From positions 1,736,001-1,800,000 of the forward strand of contig JAGPNK010000009.1 in the NCBI GenBank assembly GCA_020746835.1: 64,000 bases of DNA. Reading direction: 5' to 3'. This stretch comes from Stachybotrys elegans (Eukaryota; Ascomycota; Sordariomycetes; Hypocreales; Stachybotryaceae). The notes under the pieces were generated by a model that was not told the DNA's origin, ran no database searches, and worked only from the letters and a program-made list of their open reading frames with translations. A program made the translations under genes and the position numbers. This document shows, in pieces, positions 3,271 through 43,664 of the stretch; the first letter of the stretch is position 1, and the number at the start of each line of letters is the position of its first letter.

Positions 3271-4741
3271 TCAGACGTATTGCATCGCTGATTTGAGGTC
3301 GTCAGTCCGGAAAGGGCCTCCACCATTGGCGATTGTCGGGTTTCTCTGTGCAAACTCGTCGTCGAGTCGGGCCGAGTCTGTGGACGTCCGGGAAAAGAAG
3401 ATCCAGTAAGAGAATTGTCCAATTCCCCAGAGGATGTCAGCAATGACGATGGCGTCGACATACGCCTTCCATCCCAGAATGCCGCCCTGATGAACAACCT
3501 CAAGCCGCTGTGCATCCTTCTGAGACTGCTGAGTCTCTTCGCCCGACCCCGTCTGTCCCTCAGAGTCCTTGTGTGAGCGAATCACGTATGGCCGTACTGG
3601 GTATGCCCAAAAGTGGACAATGGAGACCAGGAGCATCTCAATACAAAGAAGCAGGTTGGGGATTCCAGCAGCCAGAGTCGGATACGAGAGTGTACCCGTC
3701 GGCTGAAGGGGCCCGTCTTCCGCTGTGAGTCGAGCGAAGATAAACTGCTAGTGGTCAATCAACGTGCTAGATGGTCAAACGGCGAAGAATGCTTACCGAT
3801 TGAAGGTAGAAGAGAAACACAACCGCCTTGATGGACAAGACTTTCAGGAGAGGGTTGTGTTCTTTCAGTGGTTCCTTTATTTCATCATAAAATTGAAGCA
3901 AATACAGCATGGCCACTACAAGTGAAGCCATTTCGACGATCCCAATCTATTACTGTTAGCATTTATTCGACCGTGGATGCTGCAGACGTACCCAGATGCT
4001 CGCGTGCTGCGTGCTATTCGACTCTGCGCAGTAAACGTCCCGAGACTCGGTGATAATCTTTGCCAGCGCCCCAAAGAACTTCACCACCACGAATTGGAGG
4101 ATGGCCAAGGAAACAATCTACGCCCGTTAGCAAGAGCAAGCATTGGAAATGGGCTAGTTGGCGCACATTCAACCATCGCAGTCCGCTCGACGGCTGCCCA
4201 CTGCGACGACGCCGGATGCACATGTGAATCAACCGGAGCGGTCCAAACCATGGTTTGGGCCGGAGCAGGTTGAAGACTCGTCTCAAGGAAGACCACTCTG
4301 GTCGTATCTCTTGGCACATGAGGATAAAGAAGCTGGCTACGGCGATGGATTCGTAAAACTCGTAACCGGCTGCGAGGTAGACGTGCCTGGAGTAGAAGTG
4401 TATACTGAGTGCGCAGGATATGGAGTAAACCGGCACCATGAAAAGGATGCGGATTATTCTACAGAGTCAGTGCTGTACTGTTTTATGCAATCATGCCACT
4501 CACTGTTTCTGGGCGAGTGGTGCCGTATAATTGGTTGCATGACGGAAGATCTGAAGCAGTGAAAGCAGACTGGCCAGCGCAGCACAGCCGGCTGCGATGT
4601 ACAGCAACAAGTCGTACGTCGTTGTGCTATCGCCAATGATTGGGTCCTCGACCACTAACGCAGGGTTATTATCTGACGAGCAAGCCTCAAGCCACATGAC
4701 CTACCTGGCACATCAAGCGGATGTTCTTCACACGTCGCCAT
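3271..4741 (-). CDS. Organic solute transporter Ost-alpha/TMEM184 family membrane protein
   Basis: Multi-exon membrane protein of the Solute_trans_a family (PF03619). A small first exon starts with ATG at 4741 (MATCEEHPLDVP) and is spliced to a long TM1 segment (YDLLLYIAAGCAALASLLSL). Then follow the family signatures NYTAPLAQKQ with a following MVPVYSISCALSIHFYSRH, and YEFYESIAVASFFILMCQEI. In a later exon (about 3805-3950) comes HNPLLKVLSIKAVVFLFYLQ. The last exon ends with a hydrophilic tail of about 70 residues and stop at 3271. Family members are seven-helix proteins linked to steroid or solute export and vacuolar function in fungi. The substrate cannot be inferred here. Intermediate exon borders were read by eye and may be off by a few bases. 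Confidence 0.75.
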
Positions 4742-9936: not shown

Positions 9937-10851
9937 ATGGCTTCTCCATTCAAAAACATCCTCCTTATCGGCGCCAGTGGCTCTATCGGAGCCATTGTTC
10001 TCGATGCACTGGTTCAAGAACCCACTTTCAATGTTACAGCACTACAACGAAAATCCTCCAAGAGCAAAATTCCCTCTGGTGTAAATGTCGTCACGATTGA
10101 TGACGCCTACCCCAGCGATGTTTTGGAGTCTATCTTTCGCGGGCAGGATGCAGTCATTAACTGCATGACATCTCTCGCTGTCAGTGATCAAATTCGCTTC
10201 ATCGACGCTGCTGTTGCCGCAAAGGTCAAGCGTTACGTCCCCTCGGAATACGGCTTGAACAACAACCGGCCAGAGGCCCGGGCACTCAACTCCGTCTTTC
10301 ATGACAAGGGCGAGGTACAGGACTACTTGCGGCTTCGAGAAAAGGATGGCCTGGAATGGATGAGCATTGCATGCGGCATGTGGTTGAAGTGGAGCGCAAA
10401 CCACGATTTTCTCGGGATGCATCTTAAGGAGAAGAGGTTTGTTATATGGGATGACGGAGAGGGATGGTTCAGCTGCACCACAGAGGAAAACACGGCACTT
10501 GGCCTGATCAACGCATTGACAAAGAGATGGGAAGAGACCAAGAACCAGATCGTCTGGCTGAGCGACTTCGCCCTCACTCAGAACATGCTTCTCGCCGCCC
10601 TCGAGCGTATCGGGGGAGAGAAGCTTCAGATCGAGAGGGTTATCACCAGCGATCTCATCAAGGAGAAACAGGCAGCTGTCGCCCAGGGAGATGTCTTGGC
10701 GACCTATGCCTTGATTGAAACTGGTTTTGTATCGGGGAAGTTTGGCGGGCACCTGGAGAAAGAGGGAAAAATAATGAATGAGCTTCTGGAGCTCCCCCCA
10801 AAGTCTGTGGATGAGGTCATCAAGGATGCTTTGGAGAGTGTGAGAGTCTAG
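9937..10851 (+). CDS. NmrA-like / isoflavone-reductase-like NAD(P)-binding protein
   Basis: Intronless 304-codon gene. The N-terminal Rossmann motif ILLIGASGSIGAIVLDAL lies at residues 8-25 and the family motif KRYVPSEYGLNNN near residue 95. Later regions (WLKWSANHDFLG, VIWDDGEGWFSCTTEENTA) match the NmrA/PCBER-type atypical SDRs. Such proteins are either cytosolic NAD(P)H reductases of aromatic compounds or redox-sensing regulators. The neighbouring intradiol dioxygenase would fit an aromatic-metabolism role, but that is inference. The Met at 9937 directly precedes the beta strand of the Rossmann fold, which is why it was chosen. Confidence 0.85.
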   Translation: MASPFKNILLIGASGSIGAIVLDALVQEPTFNVTALQRKSSKSKIPSGVNVVTIDDAYPSDVLESIFRGQDAVINCMTSLAVSDQIRFIDAAVAAKVKRYVPSEYGLNNNRPEARALNSVFHDKGEVQDYLRLREKDGLEWMSIACGMWLKWSANHDFLGMHLKEKRFVIWDDGEGWFSCTTEENTALGLINALTKRWEETKNQIVWLSDFALTQNMLLAALERIGGEKLQIERVITSDLIKEKQAAVAQGDVLATYALIETGFVSGKFGGHLEKEGKIMNELLELPPKSVDEVIKDALESVRV

Positions 10852-11061: not shown

Positions 11062-11198
11062 CTAGTACGAATGTATGTGGGATTTCCCGTTCGTGTGCCC
11101 CAATGGGATACAGACCAGCGACTTCGACGAGGCTCCCTCTGACGATAAAGACGGTATCAGATCAACAGATGACACTTGGCAACTAGTACGAATGTATG
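11062..11198 (+). repeat. Dispersed repeat copy A (about 105 bp) flanked by 16-bp perfect direct repeats
   Basis: The core begins ATGTGGGATTTCCCGTTCG at 11074 and ends near GATGACACTTGG at 11180. It is shared almost exactly with copies at 36750 (+) and 26600 (-). This copy is bracketed by the identical 16-mer CTAGTACGAATGTATG at 11062-11077 and 11183-11198, so it is either flanked by a long target duplication or is a partial tandem duplication. The short reading frame inside is a by-product of the repeat, not a gene. Confidence 0.75.
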
Positions 11199-11269: not shown

Positions 11270-12240
11270 TTAGAACGGTGCTTTTACTTTATTCGCTCTT
11301 GCCCACTCGAGGATTGCATCCTTGTCTCGGCATGTATGAGAGTAGCCGTGTACAGCAGTTAGGCCCTGATTGTTATGCAGGTCCTGGAATGGTATGGGGC
11401 TGACATCTGCATTGCACCATAATGATAGCCTTATATGTTCCATACAATGATCTGCAATGGCAAGATGATATTAGCAAGAGGACAACGACTGAAGTTATCC
11501 CTTCGACTGACCTAAATGCAGCTTCGCCTTTGCATCTGTGCTATTCCATCTCGTAGCGGGGTCGCCATAATATTCAGGTTTGAGGGTCTTGCGGACTTCG
11601 TTGAGGCAATGGATCGAGTGAAATATGTCAAGCATGACAGGATAGTATCCTGCAAGTCATTAGCTTCTCGGATAAAAGAACATATTGTCGGAGCTGAGCT
11701 CATTTACCTGGATCATTGGGTAGTTCATCGCTATGTATGTCCATCTGATCTGCTTGCCATTTGGGGATGCGACTAATCAAGTCGTAATCTGCTTCCCAAA
11801 CCGCTTCGAGTTCGGGCGATGGCTCGCCCATGTAAGGAGTTTTGTGTTTAACAGCGTCCGGATAGACAACTGAGTGATATTTGATGACCTCTGATGCCGG
11901 CGCTGAGATGCCCTGTTAGCCTCATCGTCCGTATTCAATGCATCAGGTTGGAAACAGCACGCCCGACACCCCGTGTAGACCAATACATACAGTATGTTAG
12001 AACAGCTCGGTTAGAGGTTCTCCCCAATGGCAGTGTCAAAAGACCAACAGCGACCATTAAGAAGAAGCAGCCTGTTGCCCAAAGGGCCGGGATCATCAGG
12101 CGAACCCATTCAGAGCGTTTTGCCCGATTCACCACGCGTGGTCCATTTTCCGATTCATTCTCCGATTCATATTCCGAAGATGTCAAGGCATGACTCTCTT
12201 CTCCCTTGGGGATTTCTCGGTAGTTTTTTGAACTGGGCAT
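11270..12240 (-). CDS. UstYa-like (DUF3328) oxidase, candidate RiPP cyclase
   Basis: Four exons (12240-11991, 11902-11708, 11649-11512, 11451-11270) join in phase to 254 residues with normal splice sites. The N-terminus is polar (residues 1-47), followed by one membrane helix at about 48-70 (LMIPALWATGCFFLMVAVGL). A lumenal domain carries KYHSVVYPD, YMGEPSPELEAVW and the two diagnostic HxxHC motifs: HSIHC at 159-163 (in exon 3) and HLDHC at 193-197 (split by the last intron). WCNADVSP and a C-terminal HTCRD also match the family. UstYa-type proteins are membrane-anchored oxidases that cyclise ribosomal peptides (ustiloxin, phomopsin, asperipin, epichloecyclin pathways) or perform other oxidations. 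The gene is divergent from the repeat precursor gene, with 1.2 kb between starts, and repeat copies lie on both sides. The ATG at 12240 was chosen because the in-frame codon upstream is GTG. Confidence 0.85.
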
Positions 12241-13436
12241 GATAGGCACTCAAGCGAGGAACGTGTTTTGAAAGGGGTTGAATCACAGTGATGAGCAGGA
12301 CATGGCGATGAAGACAGTTACTTCTCGCGTGATAGATAGAAATCCCGAGAGTGGGATTAGGATGCGACAACTTCCGACTTATAACGGTGGATCTAAGGGT
12401 TTTCCACCTTGTATTCACCAATCGCTTATAATCCTTCAATCGCACAATCCTTCGATAGCTTGAATCAATCCTTGGCTCTACACAACGCCGAGACCGCCGA
12501 GACAAAAGGTCTTTGCCCGATGGGCTTAGCCGTCTTGGCGTCGCCTCCCTCTTGGCATCACCCGACGACGATGATTCATCCATATACAGTTTGTCTTCCC
12601 AATCCAGAAGGTATTTGTAAGATAAGAAAGGTCTTTACGACTTCTCCTCATCGCAAACCCTTTCTATCTTGCTCCAGAAGTCCTACAAAAGTTCCAAATA
12701 TGTGGGAATTCTGGGATGGTGCCCCTTGAGCGCCAAGGCTCGTGACGTGGAGGGCCTCTCTGATAGCATACGGAGTAGACAGATTAACACTTGCTATTGA
12801 GCAGAAGAATATACCGGTTTAACAAGAGCGTCAAACCTAAGGCTATGTTCATAAATATATAAAGATTTCCGTAGACCTCTGTATACCCCAATTCATGGGA
12901 AGCTGTTATAGCAATAAGCATTGGGCATCCGGCGTCCAGTGGAAGAAGGCTTCTTCTACAGAAATGACTTCCACAAGGTAACAAATTCCCAAAGATACGG
13001 CCTGGCAAGGGTCCATGTTTTGACACGAGGGAATCCCTGATCCTGTGACCCAATCAGACAGAGGCCAGCGACTTTGAGGACGCCCCCCCCTATGATGATA
13101 AGACGTTTCTCATGCAGGTTAACAGTCATCATGTCCACTACAGTACTACGTAGTATGCAGTAGGATTCTTAAACGAATTAAACGAATTAAACGAAGGGGG
13201 CCCCGCATTCACTGAGGGGCTGCTCTCTTTTGTAACCTTGGTTGTGTTACCCATGTGCATGGGTATGTTTGGTTAGAGCCAAAGTCGACTGGCCTTAATT
13301 GCACCTGCATTGTTGGGAGGAGAATTAGTATAATAATGCAGATTGTTCTACTCTCAAGTGCCCTTCATCTCGGCAAGTCTTTCGAGTATATTTCTCACTT
13401 ACATACACCTGATATCACTACATCTTCGAAAACATC
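12241..13436. promoter_or_regulatory. Divergent promoter region between the UstYa-like gene and the precursor gene
   Basis: The 1.2 kb region separates two outward-transcribed genes, so shared regulation is likely (inference). Visible elements are a perfect 12-bp palindrome TACTACGTAGTA (13144-13155), three exact tandem copies of the 9-mer TTAAACGAA (13169-13195), and a GGGGCCCC palindrome (13197-13204). All three lie about 230-290 bp before the precursor start. A degenerate copy of the dispersed repeat lies at about 13028-13105. No other gene is supported. Confidence 0.45.
13028..13105 (+). repeat. Degenerate dispersed repeat copy E
   Basis: The segment reading GGGAATCCC..., GAGGCCAGCGACTTTGAGGA and a following GATGATAAGACG aligns to the second half of the repeat seen at 11074, 26600 and 36750, with several substitutions and small indels. 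It sits in the promoter region of the precursor gene. Confidence 0.5.
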
Positions 13437-13739
13437 ATGAAGTCATCCACTGTTTTCGTGACCCTAGGCCTCTGGCTGTCGGTTTCGACCGCACTGCCGA
13501 CTGCTAAGGAGAACCTGCTCGACAAGAAGATTGGCCTCTCCACCGACTGGATCAAGCGTGATGAGAACCTTCTTGACAAGAAGATCGGCCTCTCTACCGA
13601 CTGGATCAAGCGTGACGAGAACCTTCTCGACAAGAAGATTGGTCTTGCCACTGATTGGATCAAGCGTGACGAGAACAAGCGCGATGAGAATCTTCTTGAC
13701 AAGAAGATTGGTCTTTCTACCGACTGGATTAAGAAATAA
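13437..13739 (+). CDS. Secreted, Kex2-processed repeat precursor peptide (candidate dikaritin/epichloecyclin-type RiPP precursor)
   Basis: The 100-residue product has a signal peptide at about residues 1-19. Four repeat units follow at residues 25-41, 43-59, 61-77 and 84-100, each reading ENLLDKKIGLSTDWIKR. Unit 3 has Ala for Ser, and unit 4 ends KK. Lys-Arg sites for the Golgi protease Kex2 lie at 40-41, 58-59, 76-77 and 81-82, and Lys-Lys pairs at 30-31, 48-49, 66-67, 89-90 and 99-100. Cleavage at KR would release DENLLDKKIGLSTDWI. If KK is also cut, the octapeptide IGLSTDWI is released four times, one being IGLATDWI. The units differ at many codon third positions but almost never in amino acid. 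Layout and the adjacent UstYa-like gene match fungal RiPP precursors. An alternative is a Kex2-processed structural or effector peptide. It does not look like an alpha-pheromone precursor. Confidence 0.8.
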   Translation: MKSSTVFVTLGLWLSVSTALPTAKENLLDKKIGLSTDWIKRDENLLDKKIGLSTDWIKRDENLLDKKIGLATDWIKRDENKRDENLLDKKIGLSTDWIKK

Positions 13740-19368: not shown

Positions 19369-19768
19369 CAGGGTCTCAAATCACTCCGTAATGCAATTAT
19401 AGTCGCTTCCTGGATTTGCTTGGTTCGACCAGGGAGATTGATATCGATTGACAAGTCGATCCAACGCTATCCCATCCCATCGTGCCAGCTGAACCATCCC
19501 ACAGGGCGCAACGTGGGAAATCCTTACCCAACTTGGCAATGCGTGCGACAGGGTCGAGGCTTGCTGACTGGCACCGTCAATGCGAGGCTGGTGCAAGGCT
19601 CATTACAATAGCATGTTGATCAATCCTTCGCCCATGCTGCTACTCGAGGGTGAGGAGACGGGAAATATAAAAGCCATGTTTGAGCCAAGGAACGTTCGTG
19701 ATAGCTTCTTCTACAGCTTCTTCTCCAGCTCTTTCCACAGCTTCCTCTCAACCACAGCTTTCGACACA

Positions 19769-21172
19769 ATGGCTTTGCAAAGATGGCTTGTTGCGAGCTT
19801 GGCGTGCTTCCATGCCGCTGCCCTCAGCATTCCGCGTTCATGCAACGACAGCACCGTCGACCTGACAAAGCTGGATGCATCGATGGATTCTATCGAGGCC
19901 CTCTCCGTCCTGCAGCAAGCTACGATGCGGAATCTCTACCTAGAGGATCAGCGATCCATGCCTCAAAGGTCCACGTGCTCCTTGACGAATGCGGCTGTGC
20001 GCCGGGACTGGTAAGCTCTATTCTAGCCATCGAAGCCCGTCTAACAAGTACAGGGAACACATGTGCCCTCGCGAGAGAAAGGAATTTATCCAGGCGGTGC
20101 AATGCCTGCGGGCCAAACCTTCAATTGCTGATCCAGACTTTGCGCGAGCAGCTCGCACTCGGTACGACGACTTTACTGCCGTTCATGTCAATCTGACCAA
20201 CTTCGTCCACGCCACTGGATCCTTCCTTACATGGCACCGATACTTTATCTGGTCTTTTGAGAAGGCGCTCCGTGACGAGTGCGGATACCCGGGATATCTT
20301 CCCGTGAGTACTTGGCCCGAGTTGTCGAACGCCAGCTAATCATACAGTACTGGAACTGGTTCTCGCACGCCGATGATCCGCGAAGCTCCCCGGTTTTCGA
20401 TGGCAGTGATACCAGCATAGGCGGTGACGGCGCCTATTTCCCTCATAACGGCAGTGCTGCATTCTTTGGTTCCGTTCCTCTGCCTCCGGCCAATGGTGGA
20501 GGCTGCATTGCAAGCGGACCATTCAAAGAGTAAGCCATCTACCTTCGCCCCCAAGGTCAATGCATGCATGCTGACTGCTACAGTATCCAAGCAACCATGG
20601 GACCCATTGCCGCCGGCATGTTCGGCATGGAGCCGCCCGTGGCGAGTTTCCACGAGTACAACCCTCGCTGCATCCGTCGAGACCTCAACCACCACGTCTC
20701 GAGCAGGTTCTTCACAACTGCCAACTTGCTCAACCTGACGATTGGAGATGCTTCTAAGACCGTCAAGTCCTTCCAGGACGAGTTCAATGGTCGACCACAA
20801 GACAACGGATTCATGGGACTGCGTGAGTTGGCCCAGCAAAGAAACAGACAATCAGAGCAATTACTGACAGGTACAGATTCTGCGGGACACTACACCATCA
20901 ACGGAGAGAACACCGACTTCTATACATCTGTCAACGACCCATCATTCTTTTTTCACCATGCCATGATTGACAAAATCTTCTGGATGTGGCAGGTGCTGCA
21001 TCCCGCTGAGAGCAGGGAAGTTGCCGGCACCTTGACGCTGCGGAACGAGCCTCCCCTTGGTAACGCCACAATCTACGATCCCCTCATCATGGGTGTCAAT
21101 GCACCCACGAGGATGATTCACGAGCTCATGGGCACCATGGATGGAACCCCGCTCTGTTACATTTACGCTTAA
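19769..21172 (+). CDS. Secreted tyrosinase (type-3 copper oxidase)
   Basis: Five exons (19769-20010, 20054-20303, 20348-20529, 20584-20822, 20877-21172) join in phase to 402 residues. A signal peptide covers about residues 1-22 (MALQRWLVASLACFHAAALS). The CuA site is visible in DDFTAVHVNLTNFVHATGSF followed by LTWHRYF. The CuB site is in LHSAGHYTING and DPSFFFHHAMIDKIFWMWQ. Members of this family hydroxylate phenols to catechols and oxidise them to quinones. The short architecture, without the C-terminal lid domain of melanin tyrosinases, is the type found in several fungal peptide or small-molecule clusters. It ends 283 bp from the convergent subtilase-like gene. Participation in the nearby peptide pathway is inference, and the predicted core lacks tyrosine. 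Confidence 0.9.
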
Positions 21173-21455
21173 CCATGTTTTCACTTTGTCTACCATCTCA
21201 ACTGTTATAGACTTTGTCGAAGCGCATCACGCGGAGCTCGCAGCTTCTACGGCTTCAACCAAAACTCGATACTTCACTTATATAGAAAATATGAATCTCT
21301 CCAGGGTAACATGTCTCGCCTATATTTTGGTTATGCTATGAGCTATGGGGGCTTCCTCGAAGTAACTTAATGCCGATCCCATCGGTCACAGGGTTAGGAG
21401 TTCCTGCGCACCACTGAACTAGTGCGTGTATGCCCAGCCATCTATGCACACCATC

Positions 21456-24139
21456 TTACGGGTATACAATGTTGAAGGCCGGAGTAGTGAGAGTTACCCA
21501 GTCCTCGTCCTTGGTACCCTCGCTCAACAAACGCTGGACCCTGATAGCCAGCCTGTATCGACCGGCAGGAGCATATTCACCGCTGGCGAGCTGGCCCGTC
21601 CAGATGGCTTCGTTCTGGTAGCCTCTGGGGTAGAACTCTCCAGGGGAGCCACTAATCTCGCCGATAGACTTGTAGCCGCCTGGGATAGGGTACGTCGGTG
21701 CGCGCGGGCATGTTGTGGCCGGGACAACCTCAATGACAACTTTCTCGGCTCCCCATGGCAGATCAAAGACCATTACTGGGAAAGACAACCAAGGGTCGCT
21801 CCAATCAGGCTCCCCACCGGTTGGCTCCGGCAGATAAAAGGTTGTGTTCTCTGCAATCGGGTTATAGTACCAGTCGGCGTAGTCAAAGACAAACATGTAC
21901 GGCAGCACATTAGCCTCGTACAGCGAGCCGACAATGCCCTGATAGGGGATAGACAGTGCAGACCCATCGGTGCCATTGACAGTAATGAAGCCCGACCAGT
22001 ATGGGTAGCGCTTGGCGTTGAGACCTTCCGGAGGAGAGGCAGTCACTTCAACCGTGGCAGTTGAACCGGCAGCAACTGTGACCTTGGTCTCGCTGAAGGA
22101 TAGCTCAGCAGTCTCGGTGCTTCTCTCTCCGGGAGCCAAGTACATGTACGCCTCATCAGTCTCCAGACTGTAGAAGGTCTCTGAAGACCGGTAGGAGATA
22201 TCAAAGGTTGCCTCCTCGCCATCGTTAACAATAGTAAAGGTCATGGGTCCGGCAAGGTTGGCTGTGTCGTTGAACGACAAACCTGATGGCTCCAAGTAAG
22301 CCTTGCTAAAGGCAGCATCGTAGGCCTGGATCAAACCAGCGCCCTGCTCAGAAGCAGGAGCCAAGAAGTTCTGGAATGGCCCTCTCCAAGAGTAGAGCTG
22401 AGCCTTGGACGTTGAAGCAAAGATAGACTCGAAGAGCGCAGGCTCTGGCTTGATGCCGCGAGCTTCGGAAACCAAGGCGTATGACGCGGCTACCATGCCA
22501 ACGGCCTGGGCAGTGCCTGACCAGATAGCGTAACTCCCCTCATCAGTAAACCAGAGCGACTCGATGTAGCGTCCTGGGGCGCCAAACTGCGGCTTCAGCT
22601 GCATATCGAAAGTCGGGCCCCAGCTAGAGTAGGTGCTCATGGCACCGGGGTTGAGCCTGTTCTCGAACCTGAAGGTCTGTATAGGAGAGAACTCGAAGCG
22701 GTCGATGGTCAGCCTCAGCGTCTTTCCAGCCCTGAGGATCTCGAGGAAAGTTTCGGCAGTCTCACGGTAGATAGCCGTAGCACTGAGCGTGTTGGAGTGA
22801 CCATAGAAACTCGTGATGTCAGGACCGGCGTCGTACCTGACCACGGACCAGGCGCCAAAGTCAAACAGGTTTGAAACTTGGGTGAAGGTGTCACATTCGG
22901 AGCTCTCGCCAAAGAGGACAAAGTAGTCGGCCAGCCAGGGGGTATCGTCTGGCAGAGGCTCGCAGGCGTCGTTGGTGTTGCTCGAGTTCAAGCTGACGGC
23001 CCAGACCTCACGCTCTAAGCCATCATGGCTGTAGGGAAGACCAAACTCCCAAGGAAACGAGACGGGGTTTTCGCCGTCGACGGTATACGTAGCCACAAAG
23101 TGAGTGCCGATGGTGATGGGGCTGTCAAAGGACGCGACCGAGGTGACGCCCTTTCCGCCGGCTGGCGTGGTCGAGTCGAACATGCTAATACCACCGTTGC
23201 CGGCGGGAAGAATGCAGGGCACGCCCTTTTCGACGATCTTGCTGACTGTAAGGGCCCAGGGATCATCGGAATGTCCGCTGTAGACTCTGATGTTGGCCGA
23301 GACGATGATGTCGGCGCCATCCTCGTAGGCTCTGTTGAAGGCCGCGATGAGGGTATCAGTGTAAAACCATGAATAGCAGTCGACCACACGGTAGGCAGCC
23401 AGCTTTACACCGGGAGCAGCGCCAGTGAAGCCCCGGGGGTTCACGCCCTGGGCGGCAATGATGCCGGCCACGTGCGTGCCGGTACCATGGCAGATATCCA
23501 AGGGATCGTCGTCAGGCTGGCCACCGTTATGCGCACTCGCTCCAACAAAATCATAGCCGTGGGTAACTACGCAGCCTTCGCCAAAGCAGCCTCCGAGAGC
23601 AGGGTGGGTGTAGTCGATGCCGGTGTCGACGAGGGCAATGGTGACGCCTTCGCCGGTGACGCCCGCCTCGCGGAGCTTGTCGATGCCAGTCATGACGTGA
23701 GGTACAAACGTCGCATTATCCTCCTTCATGCTGGAAAGGGTGGAGGAAGTGACGTTGTGCTTGTCATTGATGCCCTCGACTTCGGCAATGCTGTACCTCT
23801 TAACGGGCCACATCTTCTTGACGGCCGGCAGAGAGGCCAGCAGAGAAGCATTCTCCTCGGCTGTCTCGTTGTCGAGCTGGATAGAGACACCCTTGAAAAA
23901 GCCGTAGTCAAGCGTCATACGGGTCGTGTACTCAGGCAGGGCCTGGGAACGGAATTGCGCAAAGTCCTGCAAACAGTTAGGGAGGTCCGCATCACGTAAC
24001 GGTGTGAAGAGCGTACTGAGCCATCCTCAAACTCGACAATGTAGGCACCGCGAACTATCTCGCCATCGTGCTTGGTGGTGTTTCTGGCAGCCAAGGCAGA
24101 GGTTGCCAGAAGCGACAGAGCAAGAGAAAGCCGGACCAT
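21456..24139 (-). CDS. Subtilisin-like (S8, Vpr-type) secreted protein with catalytic Ser replaced by Ala
   Basis: Two exons (24139-24017, 23966-21456) give 877 residues. The signal peptide is MVRLSLALSLLATSALA. A propeptide follows, then the S8 domain with the Asp site VDTGIDYTHP (Asp155) and the His site CHGTGTHVAG (His201). The oxyanion Asn is in LPAGNGG. The serine motif, normally GTSxA, reads WSGTAQAVG, with Ala527 encoded by GGC (reverse complement GCC) at 22509-22511. The substrate-binding strand, usually ending SLGG, reads SANIRVYSG. The C-terminal half carries the Fn3-like region of this group. The frame is fully open, so the protein is probably made, but a serine protease lacking its nucleophile should be inactive. 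It may be a pseudoprotease, an inhibitor-like binder or a decaying copy. Confidence 0.85.
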
Positions 24140-25309
24140 GGTGGCGGTTGTGCTGAGCCGGTTTGCTGTGAGCTGCCCTATCTCGAAATCAAGGGAGAAG
24201 GTGAAGCTTTATATCGTTGGAGCTGTCATCCCATCTTGCCATGCTCAAAGCCGGCGAACCAGAGAAACGACAGGCGACTCTCCACCTCTCAGCTTCTTTC
24301 GGAAACGAGGGATTTTGATGTCCAGGGCATTTTGAAGATCCTTTGCTTTCAAGAAACTCGGTTCTGATGCCGTGGCATCCTGCCTTCCTATCCTGTCACA
24401 GTATTGACGGAAGCGGGAAGTTGAGCAGGTTGTTATCAAAGATGCAGGGCCCTTTCTTGGACCTGTTGCCAAGAGCTGTCAACTATGGTACGCTGCATGG
24501 GCGGTTAATATGCAAGCCGCCAATAATCCCTCTGGGCAAGAGAAGAACCTGTCGAACATTCTACGGAAGAATGGATGCTTCGGATGCTCCAATAGGGTGC
24601 CATGCCGAGAACGATCTGCTGTGGTCTGCATTCACGCCGAAATGGTGCCGTCATCAGGAGTTTGCGATCGCGAGGCGGCAAGCGTTGGCAGTTTATCCCC
24701 CCCCCCCCCTTCCGTGTCTGTCTCCCCGCATATTCATCTCTTTGTATATTGCTAAATACGGAAGCGGGTAACGAGGTTAAAGTTGACGCCATCTCATAAT
24801 TCAAGCGCTGTCAGGGCTCAGCCGGAGTCATTGGCCGATGAGCCGCATCTCGCTAGGATAACAGAAGATTGTGTTATCAGAGAGGATCATCTCGGCACCG
24901 ACCGAGCCATTTTTTCTATTTAGCCTATCTTTTTCATATATTGTGAGCGGGCGGCCGACAAGCCTCAGGGTCATGATTGGGTACCAAAGATGTTTGCCGT
25001 TCGGTTCATTACCTGCCTGGGACTTTTGCAGTGGCAGGGTTCGTATTGGGCAGCTCATGATACGGACGATACGGATCTTGGGTTGTACTGAGGGCTCGCT
25101 AAAAATCAGCAACCTCTTGAAAAGTCGATGTTAACCGAGCCTCAAGTGCTCTATTGGGATCATAACTCTTCCTACGCCTTGGCGGCAATGCAATATTCGG
25201 TTTGCACGTCTTGCCATATGCACAACATCCTCGCCAGAGCGATAAATGCCGGGCCGAAATATGTTCAAGGATAATACACAATTGCTCAACAGGAAACTGC
25301 ATATGTACA
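24140..25309. other. Intergenic, no supported gene
   Basis: Promoter of the subtilase-like gene followed by non-coding sequence with a 12-C homopolymer at 24697-24708. Reading frames here have no recognisable domains. Confidence 0.4.
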
Positions 25310-27250
25310 TTACAATTGCTCCGTCTGCTTTATGTTGCTGGCTCCTCTCGATATCCGGACTGGACCACTGGCCCCTTTTGCGAACTATTCCTTCTCCCAA
25401 GTCGTTGTTCGGATCCCGGCGGATGTCAAAAGTCCAGAGCATTCTGGCCAAGATAATAGTCATTTCCTGATAAGAAAGATGCTTCCCAATGCAGCTGGAG
25501 CGCCCAGTACCAACCGGAGTAAAGCCCGGGCTGCGTCCAGCACCCGGTTGCATGGCGCCAGGGTCTCTACCCAGAGGCAGATTCGTCCCATCCGGGCAGG
25601 GTGCGTTGCGCTCACCGACCATCCATCGCTCAGGGATATCAGAAAGGGGCTTGGGAGAGTAGTCATCGCTCCTTTGCAAGCTGTAGTGCGGGACACCGAG
25701 GTTGACGCCTTCTGGGAAGGACTCTCTGTTCACCGTTAGTCCGCCGAGTCCGACTGCTCGCGGGAGGACGCTCAGGATCGGGGGTGAGGTTCTCATGGCT
25801 TCGTCGATGCAAGCGAGCAGGTACTTGACATCTGGTAGGTCCCTGGAAGCGAACCGAATTGGACAGGGGACCTCTGATGCGAGCTTGCCCACGGATCCGG
25901 CAGGAGGAGGAAGACCTCGCGTATCTTCCTTGCCACGCGCCGAAGTGGCACCTCGTTGTGCACAAAGCAGAGGATTATCGGGGTGACAGCGGTGATCATC
26001 CCGCCAGTGCCTCCCATAATGAACAAGCTTGCCTCTGAGATCAGCTCCTCTGGCGTTAAGGCAGTGCCAGACTTGGGATCGCGAGAGGCGAGAAGCGCTG
26101 CCCAGATACCAGGGTTCGACATACTCTTCTGCTCCATCCGCCACAAGTTGAATTATCGGCTGATGTCCATGAGCTGCCTGACTCCTTTGATAGATTCCCT
26201 GAAGAGGATTTCGTGGATGTTGCAGAGGGAGAGCGATTGCACGTGACTGACCTACAACGTCGGTTACGGATACGGGAGGCGGACGGGTGGTAGTCGTCCC
26301 AGGTGAATGAGTGCTATACCCTTAAGGAGGCCCTTGACGTAGCGCCGGTTGGCGGGTTCCTTCTGGCGGTTTCACGTACGCCCAAAGGCGACAGATCCCA
26401 TGATGTCGGCGATGCCCAAGGCGATGACATTGAACATGTTCCAGTGGCTGGAAACTGACATCGGCATCGCCGCAGCCACAAGATTTTCTCAATCGAGTGT
26501 TGTCATCTCTTGATTTGATGTCGCCTCTATCGTCAGAGGGGGCCTCGTCGAAGTCGCTGGTCTGTATCCCATTAGGGCACACGAACAAGAAATCCCACAT
26601 TGGACATGTCCTTGGCGGCTCCAGCCGAACTCGCCGCCGGACTTATTGACTACGCCCTCGGCCAGGATCTCGCCAAAGACATCGAGGTGAAGGTGGACGA
26701 GATGTTCAAACCCGCGCACGGCAGCGGGGGTGATGGCCTGGACGTTGACTCGGCGGCGAAAGGCATGGACCTTGTCGTCGATGGTTGTCAGGGTCATTTC
26801 TGCGCCGAAGAAGCGCTTGGAGGAGCCGTAGGCGCCTGACTCGAACGTGTTGGAGTTGACATTGTGTAGGTCGCGAGATGCGGCAGGGGAGTTGATGGAG
26901 ATGCGGTTCGGTCCGTAGCGAACGTATTTCCCTACAGCCCGTCAACCAGGGCAACGTAGGCGCACCATGTGAAGGACTCGTTACCATACTTCACATGTTG
27001 GCGATCCAGTAGACACTAGACAGTGTACCGCCGGGATACTCAGTCAAGGGGCGCAGCGTCAATCTGTACACCAGAGTACCTAAGACCTGGCAGCGTCAGC
27101 ACTTTGTGTGCCCCTGTTGGAGGACGCGACATACCCATTCCAGCCCTATTGGGATGGCGGTCCCTGCATATCGCAATTGGAGATGGTCTTGCAGGAGAAG
27201 CAGGTAAAAGATGGGGGCTATGCAGCGAGGATATGAGGTGGCATTACGAT
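25310..27250 (-). pseudogene. Cytochrome P450 relic split by the dispersed repeat
   Basis: Read from right to left, the P450 parts are in order but in different frames. They are VYRLTLRPLTEYPGGTL near 27080, then GKYVRYGPNRISINSPAASR near 26925, KRFFGAEMTLTTIDDKVHAF, and SSHWNMFNVIALGIADIMGS near 26420. The I-helix region follows as SLFIMGGTGGMITAV near 26020, then the K-helix DEAMRTSPP near 25790 and the heme loop FTPVGTGRSSCIG near 25490. The repeat occupies 26497-26600, between the AKDMS and MSVSSHW segments. Frameshifts occur on both sides, and an in-frame stop follows SVAFGRT. The gene cannot give a working monooxygenase. An intact P450 of another type is present at 46777-48574. Confidence 0.8.
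26497..26600 (-). repeat. Dispersed repeat copy B inside the P450 relic
   Basis: The reverse strand from 26600 reads ATGTGGGATTTCTTGTTCG and continues as a close match to copies A and C, to about 26497. ATGTC occurs in the P450 sequence on both sides of the insertion (GACATGTCC before, CCGATGTCAG after), possibly remnants of a target duplication. Confidence 0.75.
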
Positions 27251-27612
27251 GCTTGAGTCGGGACAAGGAAAAGATGAAGGAAGAGAGGGGTGGGCCTGGA
27301 GAAGGAACGTCTGATGACCTGGGCTTGGCCTGCAAGTACCCAACCCGATGGATAGACTAGACCCCGTAGATAATGCTACGTGAAACGACATGGATTGCTG
27401 ATATCGAGCCAACATGTGGTGCACGGTCATTGAAGTCCACAATTACCCTGCATAAGGTCAAATGGGGCAGCGGTGTTGGTTGCGGGAGGGCCGGTGATTC
27501 TCGGGGCGATGCCAAGGGGCCAGAGGTCTAAATAGATCACCAGTCCGCTTCACTTGACTAAGAGGAAGCCAAACCGGCCGTCCAGCCATTCACCCATTCA
27601 CCCTATCCCATC

Positions 27613-28642
27613 ATGCTGCAAGGCAAGCTCTCAGAACACATGGAGCTCAAAGAAGCAATGCCTGCCGACCCCATGGTCGAGAGGCCTCCATATCACGGGT
27701 TTTTTGTAAGTCCCCTCGACAGCAGTTGTGGTCGTGGCTGACGTCTTGCCTCAGCGTCTATTCTACCATGTCAAGACGGTGTTCCTCTTCACCAAGAGCG
27801 ACTACAAGACAATTCTTCTACCACAGGCGACATTTGCCATTTCTGCCGCCGTGTCTGGGGCCCAACTGACAACGACGTGGAGCGAGGACGGAGGGGGCGG
27901 GCTGGATGCTGTGCGACTGGCGCAGATGCTGGCGTGGATATGGGTCAATCTCCTCGTAGAGGACATCGCCAACCAGCGATTGGAAGATGCCATTGCCGAG
28001 GACCAGATCAACAAGCCCTGGCGGCCTCTACCGGCCGGGCGGCTGACGCCGGAGGAGGCAAGAGACTGGCTGATGGCCTCGATCGTCATGTCAGTCGCGG
28101 TGAGCGCGGCGATGGGGGCTCTGACACCGACGCTCAGCCTTCTGCCGATGGTCTGGATGTACAACGACCTTCACGGCAGCAGCAGCGGGTTCCTGATTCG
28201 CAACATACTCAACGGGTGCGGGCTCATGAACTTCAGCTGGGGGTCGCTGCACGTGCTGGCAGGGGGCGAGTTGCTGCCGAGAGGAGTAGCGTGGATCGCC
28301 ATGACGGGCAGCATCGTGATGACGACGATACACGCACAGGACCTGCCGGACCAGGAGGGCGACAAGGCGCGAGGGCGGAGGACCATCCCGCTGACACTGG
28401 GCCAGAGGGCAGCACGGTGGTCGTTGGTGGTGACGGTGCTATTCTGGTCGTTGGCCGCCCCGGTCTTCTGGGGAGCCTCGCTGCAGGGCGGAGGGGGCTG
28501 TTGGTGGGTCAGCGTCCCGGCTGTTGGCAGCGCCATGGTCTGGCTGGCGGTGCAGCGATGGGGGCAGGAGTGGGATGAGGTGGTGTGGAAACTGTGGTGC
28601 CTGTGGATGGCCATGATTTATGCCCTGCCCGTGCTTGTATAG
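27613..28642 (+). CDS. UbiA-type membrane prenyltransferase or terpene cyclase
   Basis: Two exons (27613-27705, 27755-28642) encode 326 residues with about eight hydrophobic helices. The first UbiA signature is NQRLEDAIAEDQINKPWRP and the second is DLPDQEGDKARGRRTIP, a DxxDxxGD motif that binds Mg2+ and the prenyl diphosphate. The N-terminal motif FYHVKTVFLFTKSDYKTILL is typical of the fungal members of this superfamily, which include both aromatic prenyltransferases and UbiA-type class I terpene cyclases. It probably acts in the ER membrane. The substrate is not deducible. It lies in a stretch of decayed biosynthetic genes (P450, SDR, acyltransferase) and may be the last intact member of a lost pathway. 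Confidence 0.85.
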
Positions 28643-33162: not shown

Positions 33163-34192
33163 CTATGGGGCCTGATTAAAGTCATAGCTGTTACCGAAGC
33201 CTCTGTTGAGGTACCGCTCCTCGGCCTCCTTTGTGCCCACCCAGTCAACAGGAATCTCCAGCCCCAGCCTTTTGTCTTTCTTGGCCTGGTCTAGGATGGG
33301 CTTGATATCGTCCCCCATTTCAAGTCGCATGGGGTTCCGATACCAAGGCGCAAAGTGAATCATGGCCAGCATAACCCGGACCTCGTCCGACGTGTTGGGC
33401 ATGCCTGCATGCCATAGTCTTAGGTCGCGCACGACGACGCTCCCCTTTTTGATGGCTGGCTGTATTGGGGGTGATACTTTGCTTCGTTCATCGAGAAGCT
33501 CCTCTCGAATGCGACCACTGGCTCTCTCACCATGAGCGCCCTCTTGAGACTCGACCCCATTGTTATGAGTTCCAAGCCATATTTCTGTGGAACCGTTGTC
33601 GGCTGTCGTGGTCACAAGAGGGACGTTGACAACGAGGGCGAAAGGATGTGTAGGATGGGCGAAATCGGCATCAGAATGCACGGGTTGTCTCTGAGGCTTT
33701 GCACCAGGAAGAGGTGGTATAGCAGAGTTGGCAGAGCAAAATGTCCATTTAGGGCAGGGTCCAAGAACGGCAGTTGTGATCTGGGTAGCGATAGGATCTG
33801 GAGGCATTAGTGTGATGCTCTTCAGTTTGAATCGTAGACTCACTCAGAAAGATCAACGGGTTGAAGTACTTGGCGACGGGAGGAGGGTCCTGCTGCAGGT
33901 TGCCTTGGTTGTAGTTGAAGGGACCATCTTCTCCTCGGCTCTGTAGAACACGTGCATCTTGGACCATTTTTTTGTTGAGAAAGTCGAGGTGCTCGTGGGG
34001 GACGACGTCCTCAATCACAACGAGGCCATCCTGGTGAATGTGACGTACGGCCTTCTCCAGATTGCGAGCCTCGAGGCTCATATGTTGGAGCTCAGAAGGC
34101 GAGGGCCGGATGACGCCAGGCTGAAGCCGGACTGTGCTGAAGCACCGAGCGGTCTTGGCAACACGCACAGGAGCGCGAAACATAGACGACAT
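33163..34192 (-). CDS. Phytanoyl-CoA dioxygenase (PhyH) family Fe(II)/2-oxoglutarate oxygenase
   Basis: Two exons (34192-33844, 33797-33163) join in phase to 327 residues. The iron-binding triad is visible: HSDAD (His and Asp) in the middle, and the distal His in VVRDLRLWHAGMPNTSDEVR, whose Arg binds 2-oxoglutarate. Members hydroxylate unactivated carbons in lipid or secondary metabolism. The first 20 residues (SSMFRAPVRVAKTARCFSTV) are basic and Ser-rich, which could be a mitochondrial targeting peptide. The substrate is unknown. The gene is tail-to-head with the Zn2Cys6 gene at 34441-35860, also on the minus strand. Confidence 0.85.
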
Positions 34193-34440
34193 CTTCTACT
34201 ATGAGAAGGCGAAGAAAGAAGTGTTGAACCATCAAAGTCCAAGGAGAAAACGAGCAGCCTCTTTATAGGCAGCATATGCAACCTGTACGTCCATGTTGAT
34301 GTGGGCTAGCGTTTTCCGAGCTCGGGAAACATCCCACCTTGACTAGACTTGGTGGGTCTCTAGTTCGTCAAGGAGGCGTTCGACGGGCCACCCGATGGTA
34401 GGCTTACACGCGAGCAGCTGACGCTTTAGCTCCTCACGCG

Positions 34441-35860
34441 CTAGTTTGGATCGTATGAATCGGGAACCTGGGGAGGGTCAGGCGGATTGGCACTTTTTGC
34501 GTGGATTTGCCTACAATATGCCATGGGCCCAAAGGCATTCACTATGACCGATGTTGTCTTGGCGGTAAAGGCGAGGCCACAGATGATGAGGGCCCATGAT
34601 TCCAAGGCGTCGTCTTTCGACATTTGTTCTTCAGATGTAAGCGGGCTCAGCTGTTGTACAGCAGCAAAACAAGCTTCAGATCCATGAATTGTGAGGAGAA
34701 TCGATGATGTTAGAAGATAATGAAGAGCAGCGGCTACAATAATGTCAGTCTCGCAATGCCGCTTCGTCAGGATGACATACCATGACACGGCTGCAATGTC
34801 CAGACAGACGGGAGCGACGAGATGACGCCCGGTAGCCCTGTGCCGGTAGAGTAGGGCTTCATATGGTCTGGCAAGCTGAATGTGCGGAGGAGGCCGAGGG
34901 CAGTAGCTTCGTCGAATGCTGGTACGGTTTCTCGATAGACCATGTTAATTATCTTCCCAAGCCTTAGGGACATCGAGTTCAAGTAATCGGCATCTACTTC
35001 ATAGCTAGAAGAAAGCGGTATCGCATCTAGATCCATCTTGAGAGCGCAACCCTCAAAAAGGCTGAAGGTGATGTCCTCGCGAAGGTAGTTCCAGAAGCCT
35101 GCAGCAACAAGTCCGTGGTGCATGTTTCCACCCAGGAGAAGCTGGTGGGAGGCCATGGAATAGGCACCCCAAAGGTGGCGGTTGGGGTCAATGTCGGCTT
35201 CATCTGCTCAATATCAACGTCTATGAGCAAAGAAAGGGTAGGATTTACCGTCAAGTATCTCGTACGATCGCAAGAGACATGTAGCGGCCAAAGCAACTCC
35301 GTTAGTCACGAGCTCGTCCTGGTCATCGAGACCTATCAACAGTTGGAGGCAACGGCTATGATATGTCTCCGCCAATTTGTACATCCCTCTACTGCAGGTC
35401 TTGCCCATGTGCATCGCAGATAGCGCCATGATGGCGCAGAAAAGGAGTGGATGATCGAGACTGAACCTTGGGACGATGTATTCGAAATGACGGGACGGGT
35501 CACTTAGGTCATACCATTTGGAGATTTCTGCAATGTAATTATTGAACAGTCGCGCCTCTTGCTGATGCGCAAGCACAGAGCGAGGATTGCAGAGTTCCTC
35601 GTCCGGATGCTCAACCTGTGTCCCATGGCTGTGTGTAGATACCGCGCTTCTATCGCAGTAGCGTCCTGCTTTGGAGCATTGCTGACAAACAGGAACTTGA
35701 CCACCGCCTAGTAGATTATTAGTTCTATTCATGTAAACTACATGGGCCACGTACACTTGACTTTGCGTCGACGGCAAGTGTTGCTGGCGGGCCGTCAGCA
35801 TGGTATCAAGACTACTACTCGAGCCACTGACCACGCATCCTTGTTCAATGGCCGAGGCAT
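34441..35860 (-). CDS. Zn2Cys6 transcription factor
   Basis: Five exons (35860-35832, 35783-35755, 35707-35249, 35203-34781, 34733-34441) give 410 residues in a continuous frame. The zinc cluster is spread over three exons, which makes it easy to miss: CNTCRRRKVKC spans the first two tiny 29-bp exons and continues as VCQQCSKAGRYC in exon 3. The middle region reads RHFEYIVPRFSLDHPLLFCA, ALSAMHMGKTCS and HLWGAYSMASHQLLLGGNMH, as in fungal regulators with a Fungal_trans_2-like core. NYLREDITFSLFEGC and NAFGPMAYCRQIH complete it. It probably regulates neighbouring genes such as the PhyH oxygenase, but no target site can be named. Confidence 0.8.
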
Positions 35861-36480
35861 AGCGGATTGCTAGTTGTGAAGTTGTTCGATAGGCAAGTCG
35901 TCTTGCAAGTGATTGGCATTCTCTCCCTGGTCCAGGGCTTGACAGATATTAGGTCATGTGGCTTGAGAGGGGATGGAGGGAGCTTGGAGAGCGCTAATGC
36001 CACGTGATTCGAACCAAGACGGGGTCTCTTTCACAGGTTGCAGAGTTACACCACGCAATGAATGCGCAATGGGCCGCAAGGGACCCCTAGGTTTCTCCTT
36101 CATTCTTAGGCGCTTTCTACAGAGGTAGTTCAAGTATTATGACCTTCTGCTGTGTGCGCCACACCATCGTTGAACTACGAGAAGCCGGTCACGTTACTCT
36201 CAACATACACATTTGTGTGTGGAAAGCTTTTCTGTTACGAGTCTTGGGCTTCTCGCATTTCGGTCCCTATGCCGACAGGGAGTACATTCCCTTTCTCCGG
36301 GTAAGCATTACGTTTTACTAGCACTTCCAACTTTAGAAGAGACCACAATCTGCTCGACCTCATTGCTCTGCACTAGGTGTCAGGAAAGCTCGGCCTCTGA
36401 CCAAACTTGTCTCGCCTGGCAACGAGATAACCTCGTTCGCCAGGAATCTATAGCCCTCTCCCGACACACCAAGTGCCAAT
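35861..36480. other. Intergenic, no supported gene
   Basis: The promoter of the regulator gene and sequence leading into the subtilase relic. Short frames at 36139-36321 and 36213-36662 have no domain of their own. Confidence 0.35.
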
Positions 36481-36484
36481 CCTG

Positions 36485-36749
36485 CGCAAAGAGCTGTAAG
36501 CCGCACCGCCTGACAAACGACATCCTGCACAAAGCAGGTTTGCCTAGTAAGGGTCTGAGGATTGCAATTTTGAACGGCGGCATCGACTACAAAGCATCCC
36601 GTTCTCGGTGGCTACTTCGGCTCGGACTCTCGAATGGCCTACGGAACAGGGCTCGTGGATAACGAGAAGCCCGCACTGCCAACAGGTGACCCATACGATA
36701 CTTGCTCTGGAGGCGGTGGGCACAGCACTCATCTGGCGGGAATCGTTAT
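36485..36749 (+). pseudogene. Subtilisin-like protease relic truncated at a dispersed repeat
   Basis: DILHKAGLPSKGLRIAILNG, then GIDYK, matches the Asp region of Vpr-type subtilases, with the catalytic Asp of VDTG changed to Asn (LNGG). An extra A at about 36591-36594 shifts the frame. After it the reading is HPVLGGYFGSDSRMAYG, GDPYDTCSGGGGHSTHLAGI. This covers the His motif, where HGTH has become HSTH. Similarity ends exactly where repeat copy C begins at 36750, and the Ser half of the gene was not found in the next kilobase. Confidence 0.7.
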
Positions 36750-36855
36750 GTGGGATTTCCCGTTCGTGTGCCCCAATGGGATACAGACCAGTGACTTCGA
36801 GGAGGCCCCCTCTGACGATAAAGACGATATCAGATCAATAGATAACAATTGGTTA
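36750..36855 (+). repeat. Dispersed repeat copy C at the end of the subtilase relic
   Basis: Starts ATGTGGGATTTCCCGTTCG and runs to about AACAATTGG, nearly identical to copy A. The flanking ATCGTT (36743-36748) and AACGAT (36864-36869) are inverted complements, which may be coincidental. Confidence 0.75.
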
Positions 36856-36859
36856 GACT

Positions 36860-38449
36860 CACCAACGATATGATGCCTCTGCCATGGAAAATCTCAGTTC
36901 CGAATTCGAGCACTCAGGCTACCTGGAAACCCAGCTATTGAGGATGGTTGGGTAGTCGTCGACACAGCCCCTCTCGTTCTTAAGTGGCCCGATCAAGAAT
37001 ATTTCATTCTGGAACGATCCTGTGACAAACCTCAGCATTGCTGATGGGACCATGTCACGATCATCGACCAACCCGATTGTTGTTGTTAGGTATTTAGACA
37101 AGATCTGTCCTACGCCTTTCAGGGACCATGAGAAAACTGGCTAGTTATTATTCATAAGCACTACTGTCCGAGCATTGTTCTCACAGTGATATCGAGCCCT
37201 GTGCCTGTGTACCAGCGCGAGCAAGCCGCTCAGCTGAGCAATACGGGAGTCTTACAAACAATGATCTGCTATCGACATGATCGCGTGAGACACAATGATA
37301 AGATATTTTTGTAATGTAATGTAACAAACCAGCCATGAAGCCGACTTTGAAGGAAGGATTTGCGATTACTGGCGGGAGTGGGATTGAGAATGTACCAGAT
37401 TCGTTCCACTTCTTTATCTCTCATTATGTGATATGCCTTTCTGACAAGACGGTGCCGTCTGTGATCCCCAATTTCACAAAAGCAGTAACCTGGCCCTTGC
37501 TTCCCCACCTATTATTATTCTACTGAGCGTGGCTCTCAGTGGCCATTCAAGATCTGCTTGAGCTTTTAGATGAGGCTAACGAGACCGTGTTTGCCCAGGG
37601 CCCCTGGCAGACACGTCTACTTATCCCCTCTACTCCGTACAGTACAACCAAAAAATTCACGTGGACATCCTGGAGGGCTGCCATGTGTCGGGAGAACAGT
37701 GGCGCTGCCAAGCCCGAGGGAAGCTTATGCTTACAGATTTCTGCATGGATTAACTGGGGCCAGTCGACAGCAACTCCTCAACTGGAAGGTCAGACAGGAC
37801 TTTGGTTCTTCTTGGCCCTGAAAGCAAGGCGCATGCGCTAATATTGGTATGTTACGGCTCGCACACGCACTGGCGGGCTATCAGAGTGGGGATCGTGATG
37901 ACGAACGAACGGGCTGTGCCGTATAAGGGATTGTGTAGCTCAGGGGAGTTGATGGATGGATGGATGGGGGCGTCAGCGAGTAGATATGCTGATCTTGAGC
38001 GGAATCGAGTTTCTGGGAGCGGCCGGGCTGAGAATTGTGTTTACTGGGACCCTGCTCGGTCGCACAGCAAGATACCGACGCAGGGTTCATTCTTGACACC
38101 ACCCAGTTGTCCGAGCAGTCATACTGGAGCTTGTCATCTCCATGCCGCAAACAGTCAGCCGAACCGGACAATGAGGAGTGGTTTCGGTCACCCCGGTGGC
38201 CAGTACGGAGCCATTTGATTGCCAATACAAGGTGACTGGTATTTGCCAGGATGCGCTGCCTACCTGGGATCTGCCTCCTCCACATTCGATCATGACGCTT
38301 TGTCGGGAGCTAGGACGCATTAGAGGGGGCAGAAGTTCAAGTACTAGGTAGCTGCACCGTCTAATGCTCGTGTCCTTGCTTGCGTTCATAATACTGGCCC
38401 TACCTATCGCTTATTCGACTGGACAACGTCGATGAAGCTTTAGACTGAC
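36860..38449. other. Intergenic, no supported gene
   Basis: About 1.6 kb with short frames lacking motifs. A (GGAT)n-like run lies near 37950-37966. No gene is supported apart from the promoter of the next PTH11-like gene. Confidence 0.4.
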
Positions 38450-43399: not shown

Positions 43400-43664
43400 A
43401 CTCGACTGGAGGCGTACACTCAACCATCTGAGAGCAACTGGAATTGGCTTGTAAGATGGATGAATGGGGAAATTCACTGTGCGCGATGGCATGATTTAAT
43501 TACATATTGCGAAATATATTGATTCTCAACTGTGATGAGAGTGGTGCCATAATTTGAAGAGCAGGTGATGAAAGATACTATGTGCCATCGTCTCGATCTG
43601 CTCCAATCCTGGGTGCATGTCTGACAATTACACCACCCCGCCTATGCTCAGTTGCTACTCTATC

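What the first reader, a model, noticed from the sequence alone, without database searches (positions are those of the whole stretch)
11270..13739. Compact fungal RiPP locus: UstYa-like oxidase divergent from a Kex2-type repeat precursor
A secreted 100-residue protein with four near-identical repeats and KR (KK in the last) termini starts 1.2 kb from, and divergent to, a four-exon UstYa-type gene with both HxxHC motifs. A precursor plus a UstYa-like oxidase is the minimal core of dikaritin/epichloecyclin pathways. I do not recognise this repeat sequence from any described product, so the peptide may be new. Linkage in function is inferred from position and family.
Basis: partly seen in the sequence, partly recalled or inferred. 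Interest (0 to 1): 0.95.

Follow-up and report, generated by a model that had tools for sequence, protein, structure and literature searches.

The report
Fungal repeat-peptide and UstYa oxidase locus
A fungal genome carries a small gene for a secreted protein made of four copies of one short peptide, beside a gene for an oxidase of the kind known to modify such peptides, so it probably makes a new modified peptide by a known type of pathway.

Summary
A 100-residue repeat precursor (13437-13739, +) is divergent to, and 1.2 kb from, a four-exon UstYa gene (12240-11270, -; PF11807, E 9.7e-42) with both HxxHC motifs. The four repeats differ almost only at silent sites (pS 0.60, pN 0.014). The pairing looks systematic: of 11 UstYa places in this genome scanned with long flanks, 5 have a repeat-precursor ORF within about 1.8 kb, and none was found in 185 kb further off. 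Two unnamed precursor relatives keep K-I and D-W in every repeat; one has AK for the internal KK, so the octamer IGLSTDWI is a less likely product than the 14-16-mer or a trimmed form of it. Trp is the core's only aromatic residue. Best reading: a new member of the dikaritin kind. Product, chemistry and expression are unproven, and conservation of the neighbourhood in other species could not be tested.

The parts
13437..13739 (+). Kex2-processed repeat precursor, 100 aa, uninterrupted ORF
   Evidence: ORF and repeats; selection on repeats; two homologues:
13437..13493 (+). signal-peptide-like region (residues 1-19, presumed cut after STA)
   Evidence: hydropathy of the first residues; no SignalP available, so inferred
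13509..13559 (+). repeat 1, ENLLDKKIGLSTDWIKR
13560..13613 (+). repeat 2, DENLLDKKIGLSTDWIKR
13614..13667 (+). repeat 3, DENLLDKKIGLATDWIKR
13668..13682 (+). short extra unit DENKR
13683..13736 (+). repeat 4, DENLLDKKIGLSTDWIKK (C-terminal)
11270..12240 (-). UstYa-family oxidase gene, exons 12240-11991, 11902-11708, 11649-11512, 11451-11270; 254 aa; HSIHC and HLDHC
   Evidence: splice model; Pfam PF11807 E 9.7e-42; homologues; alignment
9937..10851 (+). NmrA / isoflavone-reductase-like gene, 304 aa, tail to tail with UstYa; candidate third gene (AprR-type), membership in the locus not shown
   Evidence: Pfam PF05368 E 2.2e-22 for the longer ORF; nearest solved structure by sequence an isoflavone reductase, 2gas_A, E 6.7e-9; of 18 UstYa loci the only one with an NmrA match within 30 kb
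12241..13436 (.). divergent intergenic region (1,196 bp), candidate shared promoter; holds TTAAACGAA x3 at 13169-13195
   Evidence: promoter role is inference

Best explanation
A dikaritin-type RiPP locus with a gene set like a reduced asperipin-2a cluster. The precursor enters the secretory pathway by its signal peptide (inferred from sequence). Kex2 cuts after the KR pairs and a carboxypeptidase trims the basic tails, giving copies of DENLLDKKIGL[SA]TDWI (inferred). The UstYa-family oxidase, with its two HxxHC motifs and one hydrophobic N-terminal segment, oxidises the peptide; with no Tyr, Phe or His in the core, Trp is the most likely aromatic partner of a side-chain crosslink (inference). 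The isoflavone-reductase-like protein would tailor the product, as a reductase does in asperipin-2a maturation (inference). The N-terminal half may be trimmed later, or serve as recognition sequence. Shown: gene structures, families, selection on the repeat, recurrent pairing in the genome. Not shown: expression, processing, modification, activity.
For: Precursor with signal-like start and 4 repeats; selection across repeats; UstYa family with both motifs. Pairing: 5 of 11 UstYa places scanned two-sidedly (10 places with about 10 kb on each side, plus the window) have a repeat-precursor ORF, gaps 0.6-1.8 kb; 0 in 185,306 bases more than 3 kb from a UstYa match; 0 in one base-shuffled copy of the 262,010 bases. 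A sixth at contig C45 was found by the detector, not by that. That makes 6 of 18 merged loci (the set of six was entered by hand); 7 of the 18, C45 among them, were seen only within about 1.5 kb of a match. One neighbour precursor (EIDVADAF-KR) has a start much like this one (by eye). The genome has one kexin P-domain match. An NmrA gene within 1 kb: 0.0045 expected for this locus, 0.083 for any of 18. Asperipin-2a cluster: precursor aprA, one UstYa homologue aprY, transporter aprT, isoflavone reductase aprR; and UstA is thought to be first cut into 13-14-residue peptides (PMC6514808, passages).
Against: No Tyr in the repeats, whereas 65.6% of repeat sequences with a UstYa gene nearby contain Tyr; Trp is no commoner with UstYa (20.5%) than without (24.5%) (PMC7329392 section 7). 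No transporter lies next to the trio: the nearest transporter-family exons among 30 ORFs scanned (PF03619, 3274-4466) are 5.5 kb beyond the NmrA gene with two other genes between. Sarocladium strictum holds two UstYa homologues (57% and 46%), but no precursor homologue bearing that name was found (P0001 and P0002 are unnamed). The NmrA link was looked for after the gene was seen, and NmrA is a large family (about 50 genes, a lower bound). No expression data.
Confidence: 0.72

Rival explanations
1. The repeat protein is a precursor of linear secreted signalling peptides (pheromone-like), and the UstYa gene belongs to another pathway; closeness is accidental.
For: 6,120 of 7,878 repeat precursors in fungi have no UstYa neighbour, and with three exceptions annotated pheromone precursors have none (PMC7329392 abstract and section 7). 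No Tyr in the core.
Against: Repeat precursors cluster at UstYa genes in this genome (5 of 11 places scanned two-sidedly, none in 185 kb of distant sequence). The peptide does not resemble alpha-pheromones (recalled, no call).
Confidence: 0.15
2. Same RiPP locus (a variant of the best explanation, so the odds overlap), but the product is the octamer IGLSTDWI, cut at the internal KK, with N-terminal Ile linked to the internal aromatic residue as in epichloecyclins.
For: KK before Ile in 4 of 4 units here and 5 of 5 in P0001; in epichloecyclins the Ile is N-terminal and the Tyr internal (PMC9233826 passage).
Against: P0002 has AK in 4 of 4 units, so a dibasic site is not conserved; LLD before it is kept in 13 of 13 units (counted).
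Confidence: 0.25
3. A larger cluster reaching to the tyrosinase (about 19.8-21.2 kb) and subtilase (21.5-24.0 kb), as in ustiloxin and phomopsin clusters.
For: Tyrosinase domain at 20534-21169 and S8 peptidase at 21459-24026; ustiloxin and phomopsin pathways need a tyrosinase (PMC6514808 passages).
Against: A GH62 gene and a DUF4646-like ORF (below its cut-off) lie between; tyrosinase matches are many in this genome (48 match rows); the core has no Tyr.
Confidence: 0.08

Closest known systems
asperipin-2a cluster (aprA, aprY, aprT, aprR; Aspergillus flavus)
   Same: repeat precursor, a single UstYa homologue, an isoflavone-reductase-type gene (PMC6514808 passages)
   Different: core there is FYYTGY with Tyr ether links; here Trp only; no transporter gene next to it
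epichloecyclins (gigA, Epichloe)
   Same: Kex2-type repeat precursor; N-terminal Ile of the core and an internal aromatic residue, if KK is cut (PMC9233826 passages)
   Different: Tyr there, Trp here; KK not conserved in relative P0002
victorin
   Same: dikaritin whose core is closed through Phe, not Tyr (PMC9233826 passage; listed as a dikaritin in PMC10512285 passage)
   Different: other aromatic residue; chlorinated product; core sequence unrelated (recalled)
Kex2-processed repeat proteins with a DUF3328/UstYa gene among the 15 nearest genes (1,758 of 7,878, Umemura 2020)
   Same: architecture and closeness; 20.5% of those repeats contain Trp (PMC7329392 section 7)
   Different: whether this repeat family is among its types is unknown: the supplementary tables could not be read here

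Membership tests
dikaritin-type RiPP locus | secreted precursor with repeated cores separated by Kex2 sites | tested here: met
   signal peptide judged by eye and hydropathy only
dikaritin-type RiPP locus | UstYa/DUF3328 protein gene close by | tested here: met
   PF11807 E 9.7e-42; 1.2 kb, divergent
dikaritin-type RiPP locus | two HxxHC motifs in that protein | tested here: met
   HSIHC and HLDHC
dikaritin-type RiPP locus | Tyr in the core (typical, not universal: victorin) | tested here: not met
   0 Tyr, 4 Trp after the signal peptide
dikaritin-type RiPP locus | oxidatively cyclised product | not testable with these tools
   needs LC-MS of wild type and UstYa deletion
dikaritin-type RiPP locus | precursor and UstYa gene stay neighbours in other species | not testable with these tools
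   no fungal genome collection open; viral and prokaryote scans empty
asperipin-2a type cluster | isoflavone-reductase-like gene beside a single UstYa gene | tested here: met
asperipin-2a type cluster | transporter gene in the cluster | tested here: inconclusive
   no transporter next to the trio; PF03619 exons at 3274-4466, 5.5 kb beyond NmrA with two genes between; 30 ORFs scanned, short exons may be missed
asperipin-2a type cluster | Tyr-rich core FYYTGY | tested here: not met
   core (D)ENLLDKKIGL[SA]TDWI
ustiloxin/phomopsin type cluster | tyrosinase and S41 peptidase in the cluster | tested here: inconclusive
   tyrosinase about 6 kb away with unrelated genes between; no S41 family among the 30 ORFs scanned

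The most novel reading that the evidence does not exclude
A UstYa oxidase that crosslinks a Trp (to a Lys, Asp, Ile or Leu side chain) in a 14-16-residue core, with the whole unit, NLLDxKI...DWI, in the final product: a Trp-based dikaritin subclass longer than the hexa- and nonapeptide cores of asperipin, phomopsin and epichloecyclin, marked by the K-I and D-W kept in all repeats of three related precursors.
Probability: 0.3. Interest if true: 0.68.

Novelty: new member of a known kind. Interest (0 to 1): 0.48.

Why it matters
A 2022 review counted five reported dikaritins, although 22% of 7,878 repeat precursors have a UstYa gene nearby (PMC10512285 passage; PMC7329392 abstract). A compact locus with a Trp-only core and four near-identical copies is a clean test of what UstYa enzymes can do beyond Tyr and Phe. 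The genome is a good bench for it, since five other precursor-UstYa pairs with different repeats were seen in it.

Tried and rejected
Chance repeat: rejected by the silent-site pattern. Other-frame reading: four of five other frames show mostly amino-acid-changing differences; reverse frame rev1 does not (pS 0.530, pN 0.031) but is less extreme. Recent copy of another UstYa locus of this genome: the best other match is 34% identical. PF25893, listed by the database for P0001, was not returned by hmmscan at E up to 5 (only matches below their cut-offs), so no use was made of it. Structure: the model of the S. strictum homologue P0003 had mean pLDDT 42.6 and was not searched. No PDB chain matches the UstYa profile at E up to 1. 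Rfam: 0 matches in the window at gathering score. NCBIfam: nothing for the NmrA protein or the precursor. Similarity of the NmrA protein to anything in the 20 fetched stretches: only weak fragments, E 0.1-0.6. Repeat strings in the paper library: 31 papers held at least one of five strings; the 20 listed look unrelated by title, 11 were not shown. Four pieces of the repeats (STDW, ASDW, KISP, LLDKK) are absent from the main text of the Trichoderma RiPP paper PMC7099791. The precursor's weak match L002 (22% identity, E 9.3e-4) shows no repeat precursor by the detector; not read further.

Full report
The precursor. The ORF at 13437-13739 (+) encodes MKSSTVFVTLGLWLSVSTA|LPTAK followed by four units of (D)ENLLDKKIGL[SA]TDWI ending in KR, KR, KR and KK, with one short DENKR between units 3 and 4. 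At DNA level it is a 54-base tandem repeat. Over the four 15-codon units compared in six pairs, 34 differences are silent and 3 change the protein (pS 0.602, pN 0.014). The single changed residue is Ser to Ala in unit 3. Repeats that have drifted at silent sites but not in protein point to selection on the peptide.

The oxidase. The minus-strand gene has four exons (12240-11991, 11902-11708, 11649-11512, 11451-11270), GT-AG introns and a 254-residue product. It matches Pfam UstYa (PF11807) over residues 39-248 with E 9.7e-42. It has one hydrophobic N-terminal segment (by eye), HSIHC and HLDHC. The closest of 7 homologues found is from Sarocladium strictum (57% identity). The two His and the Cys of the first motif are invariant in the 8-row alignment; in the second motif P0006 has ILDHC, P0007 HLEHC, and P0009 lacks that region.

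The candidate third gene. 418 bases behind the UstYa stop, tail to tail, lies a 304-residue NmrA-family ORF (PF05368) whose nearest solved structure by sequence is an isoflavone reductase (2gas, E 6.7e-9). The genome has 55 NmrA match rows, about 50 genes after merging. Of 18 UstYa loci only this one has an NmrA match within 30 kb, here 624 bases from the UstYa gene; the next nearest are 32 and 33 kb away, and 4 loci have none on their contig. About 0.0045 such neighbours are expected within 1 kb of this locus by chance, and 0.083 for any of the 18. I looked at this after seeing the gene, so it is suggestive only. It matters because the asperipin-2a cluster consists of a precursor, one UstYa homologue, a transporter and an isoflavone reductase (PMC6514808, passages). 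A transporter is not found next to the trio; PF03619 exons lie at 3274-4466 with a TatD-type and a dioxygenase-type gene between.

Is the pairing more than position? The genome (43.4 Mb, 61 contigs) holds 28 PF11807 match rows, a lower bound, 18 loci after merging. Ten loci were fetched with about 10 kb on each side and, with the window, scanned for ORFs with three or more similar KR/RR-bounded units. Five of these 11 places have such an ORF, 0.6 to 1.8 kb from a UstYa match; none occurs in the 185,306 bases more than 3 kb away, and none in one base-shuffled copy of the 262,010 bases. A sixth lies at C45, found with the detector but not with that. A second, differently built detector also flagged an Ala-rich frame at C60, about 8.5 kb from a UstYa match, and two overlapping wrong frames of the window's own precursor. 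Signal-like starts lie upstream of the five other precursors, but only the C23:1885208 one is in an uninterrupted ORF; the other four would need introns, which I did not model. Their repeats are VAYGRHTDDVS, QYQLVVSQHG, ARHHQGGRAKGNGRGRNN, EIDVADAF and ASVLPPLVDAG; three of the five (the last three) have no Tyr in the repeat.

Relatives of the precursor. Two searches of 5.8 billion proteins gave the same two unnamed relatives, P0001 (63% identity) and P0002 (58%) (in one search only the 7,992 candidates sharing most words were scored). Their repeats read (D)ENLLDKKISPASDWI and DNLLDAKISPSTDWI. Over the 13 units of the three proteins, LLD, K-I and D-W are kept in 13 of 13, and the middle varies (counted by eye). 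The KK pair is AK in all four units of P0002. If one product type is shared, the Kex2 product is the 14-16-mer. It may be trimmed later: UstA is thought to be cut first into 13-14-residue peptides, while the ustiloxin ring holds four residues (recalled). That precedent speaks for a smaller final product and against the bold reading.

Mechanism. Shown: gene structures, families, selection and the recurrent pairing. Inferred: secretion, Kex2 cutting (one kexin P-domain match in the genome), oxidation by UstYa, tailoring by the reductase (a reductase takes part in asperipin-2a maturation according to PMC12048977, passage). Trp is the only aromatic residue of the core. The described cores are linked through Tyr or, in victorin, Phe (PMC9233826 passages). 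Trp occurs in 20.5% of repeat sequences with a UstYa gene nearby and in 24.5% without (PMC7329392 section 7), so Trp itself is no sign of a UstYa substrate. A search for UstYa, tryptophan, RiPP and fungal gave 4 papers; I saw passages of two, which describe no Trp-linked UstYa product. That does not show that none is in print, as most subscription journals are not held.

Papers seen: PMC7329392 abstract, section 6 part 1 and section 7; passages only of PMC7099791, PMC9233826, PMC6339444, PMC6514808, PMC12048977 and PMC10512285; listings only for the rest.

Limits. The fungus is not named. No fungal genome collection could be searched for the neighbourhood; one scan each of viral and prokaryote contigs found no relative. 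Expression, product and activity are unknown.

Verdict: a real, well-formed new member of the dikaritin kind, with an asperipin-like gene set and a Trp-only core. Novelty lies in the peptide, not in the kind of system.

Noticed in passing
11079-11153 and 13029-13105: A 75-77 bp element is present in two similar copies in direct orientation on either side of the UstYa gene (alignment score 49 against a maximum of 27 in 100 shuffles); partial copies at C19:221160 (84%) and C10:381797 (77%) (which did not itself list the 11079 copy). Their surroundings could not be read.
   Followed up: partly
19568-24026: Tyrosinase-domain gene followed by a convergent S8 subtilase with an Fn3-like domain.
   Followed up: partly
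25134-28639: Cytochrome P450 exon (minus) beside a UbiA-family prenyltransferase (plus), possibly a separate terpenoid or meroterpenoid locus.
   Followed up: no
33166-48303: PhyH dioxygenase, fungal transcription factor domain, DUF7029 and a second P450.
   Followed up: no
L033 (C5:1208237), L041 (C34:2697135), L045/L013 (C23:1885208), L031 (C23:471685), L027 (C45): Five other repeat-precursor ORFs beside UstYa genes in the same genome, each with a different repeat. The C23:1885208 precursor has a signal-like start resembling the window's and lies between two UstYa matches.
   Followed up: partly
59838-59906: Tandem array of an 11-base unit CAAAGAGGCGG, 6.3 copies.
   Followed up: no
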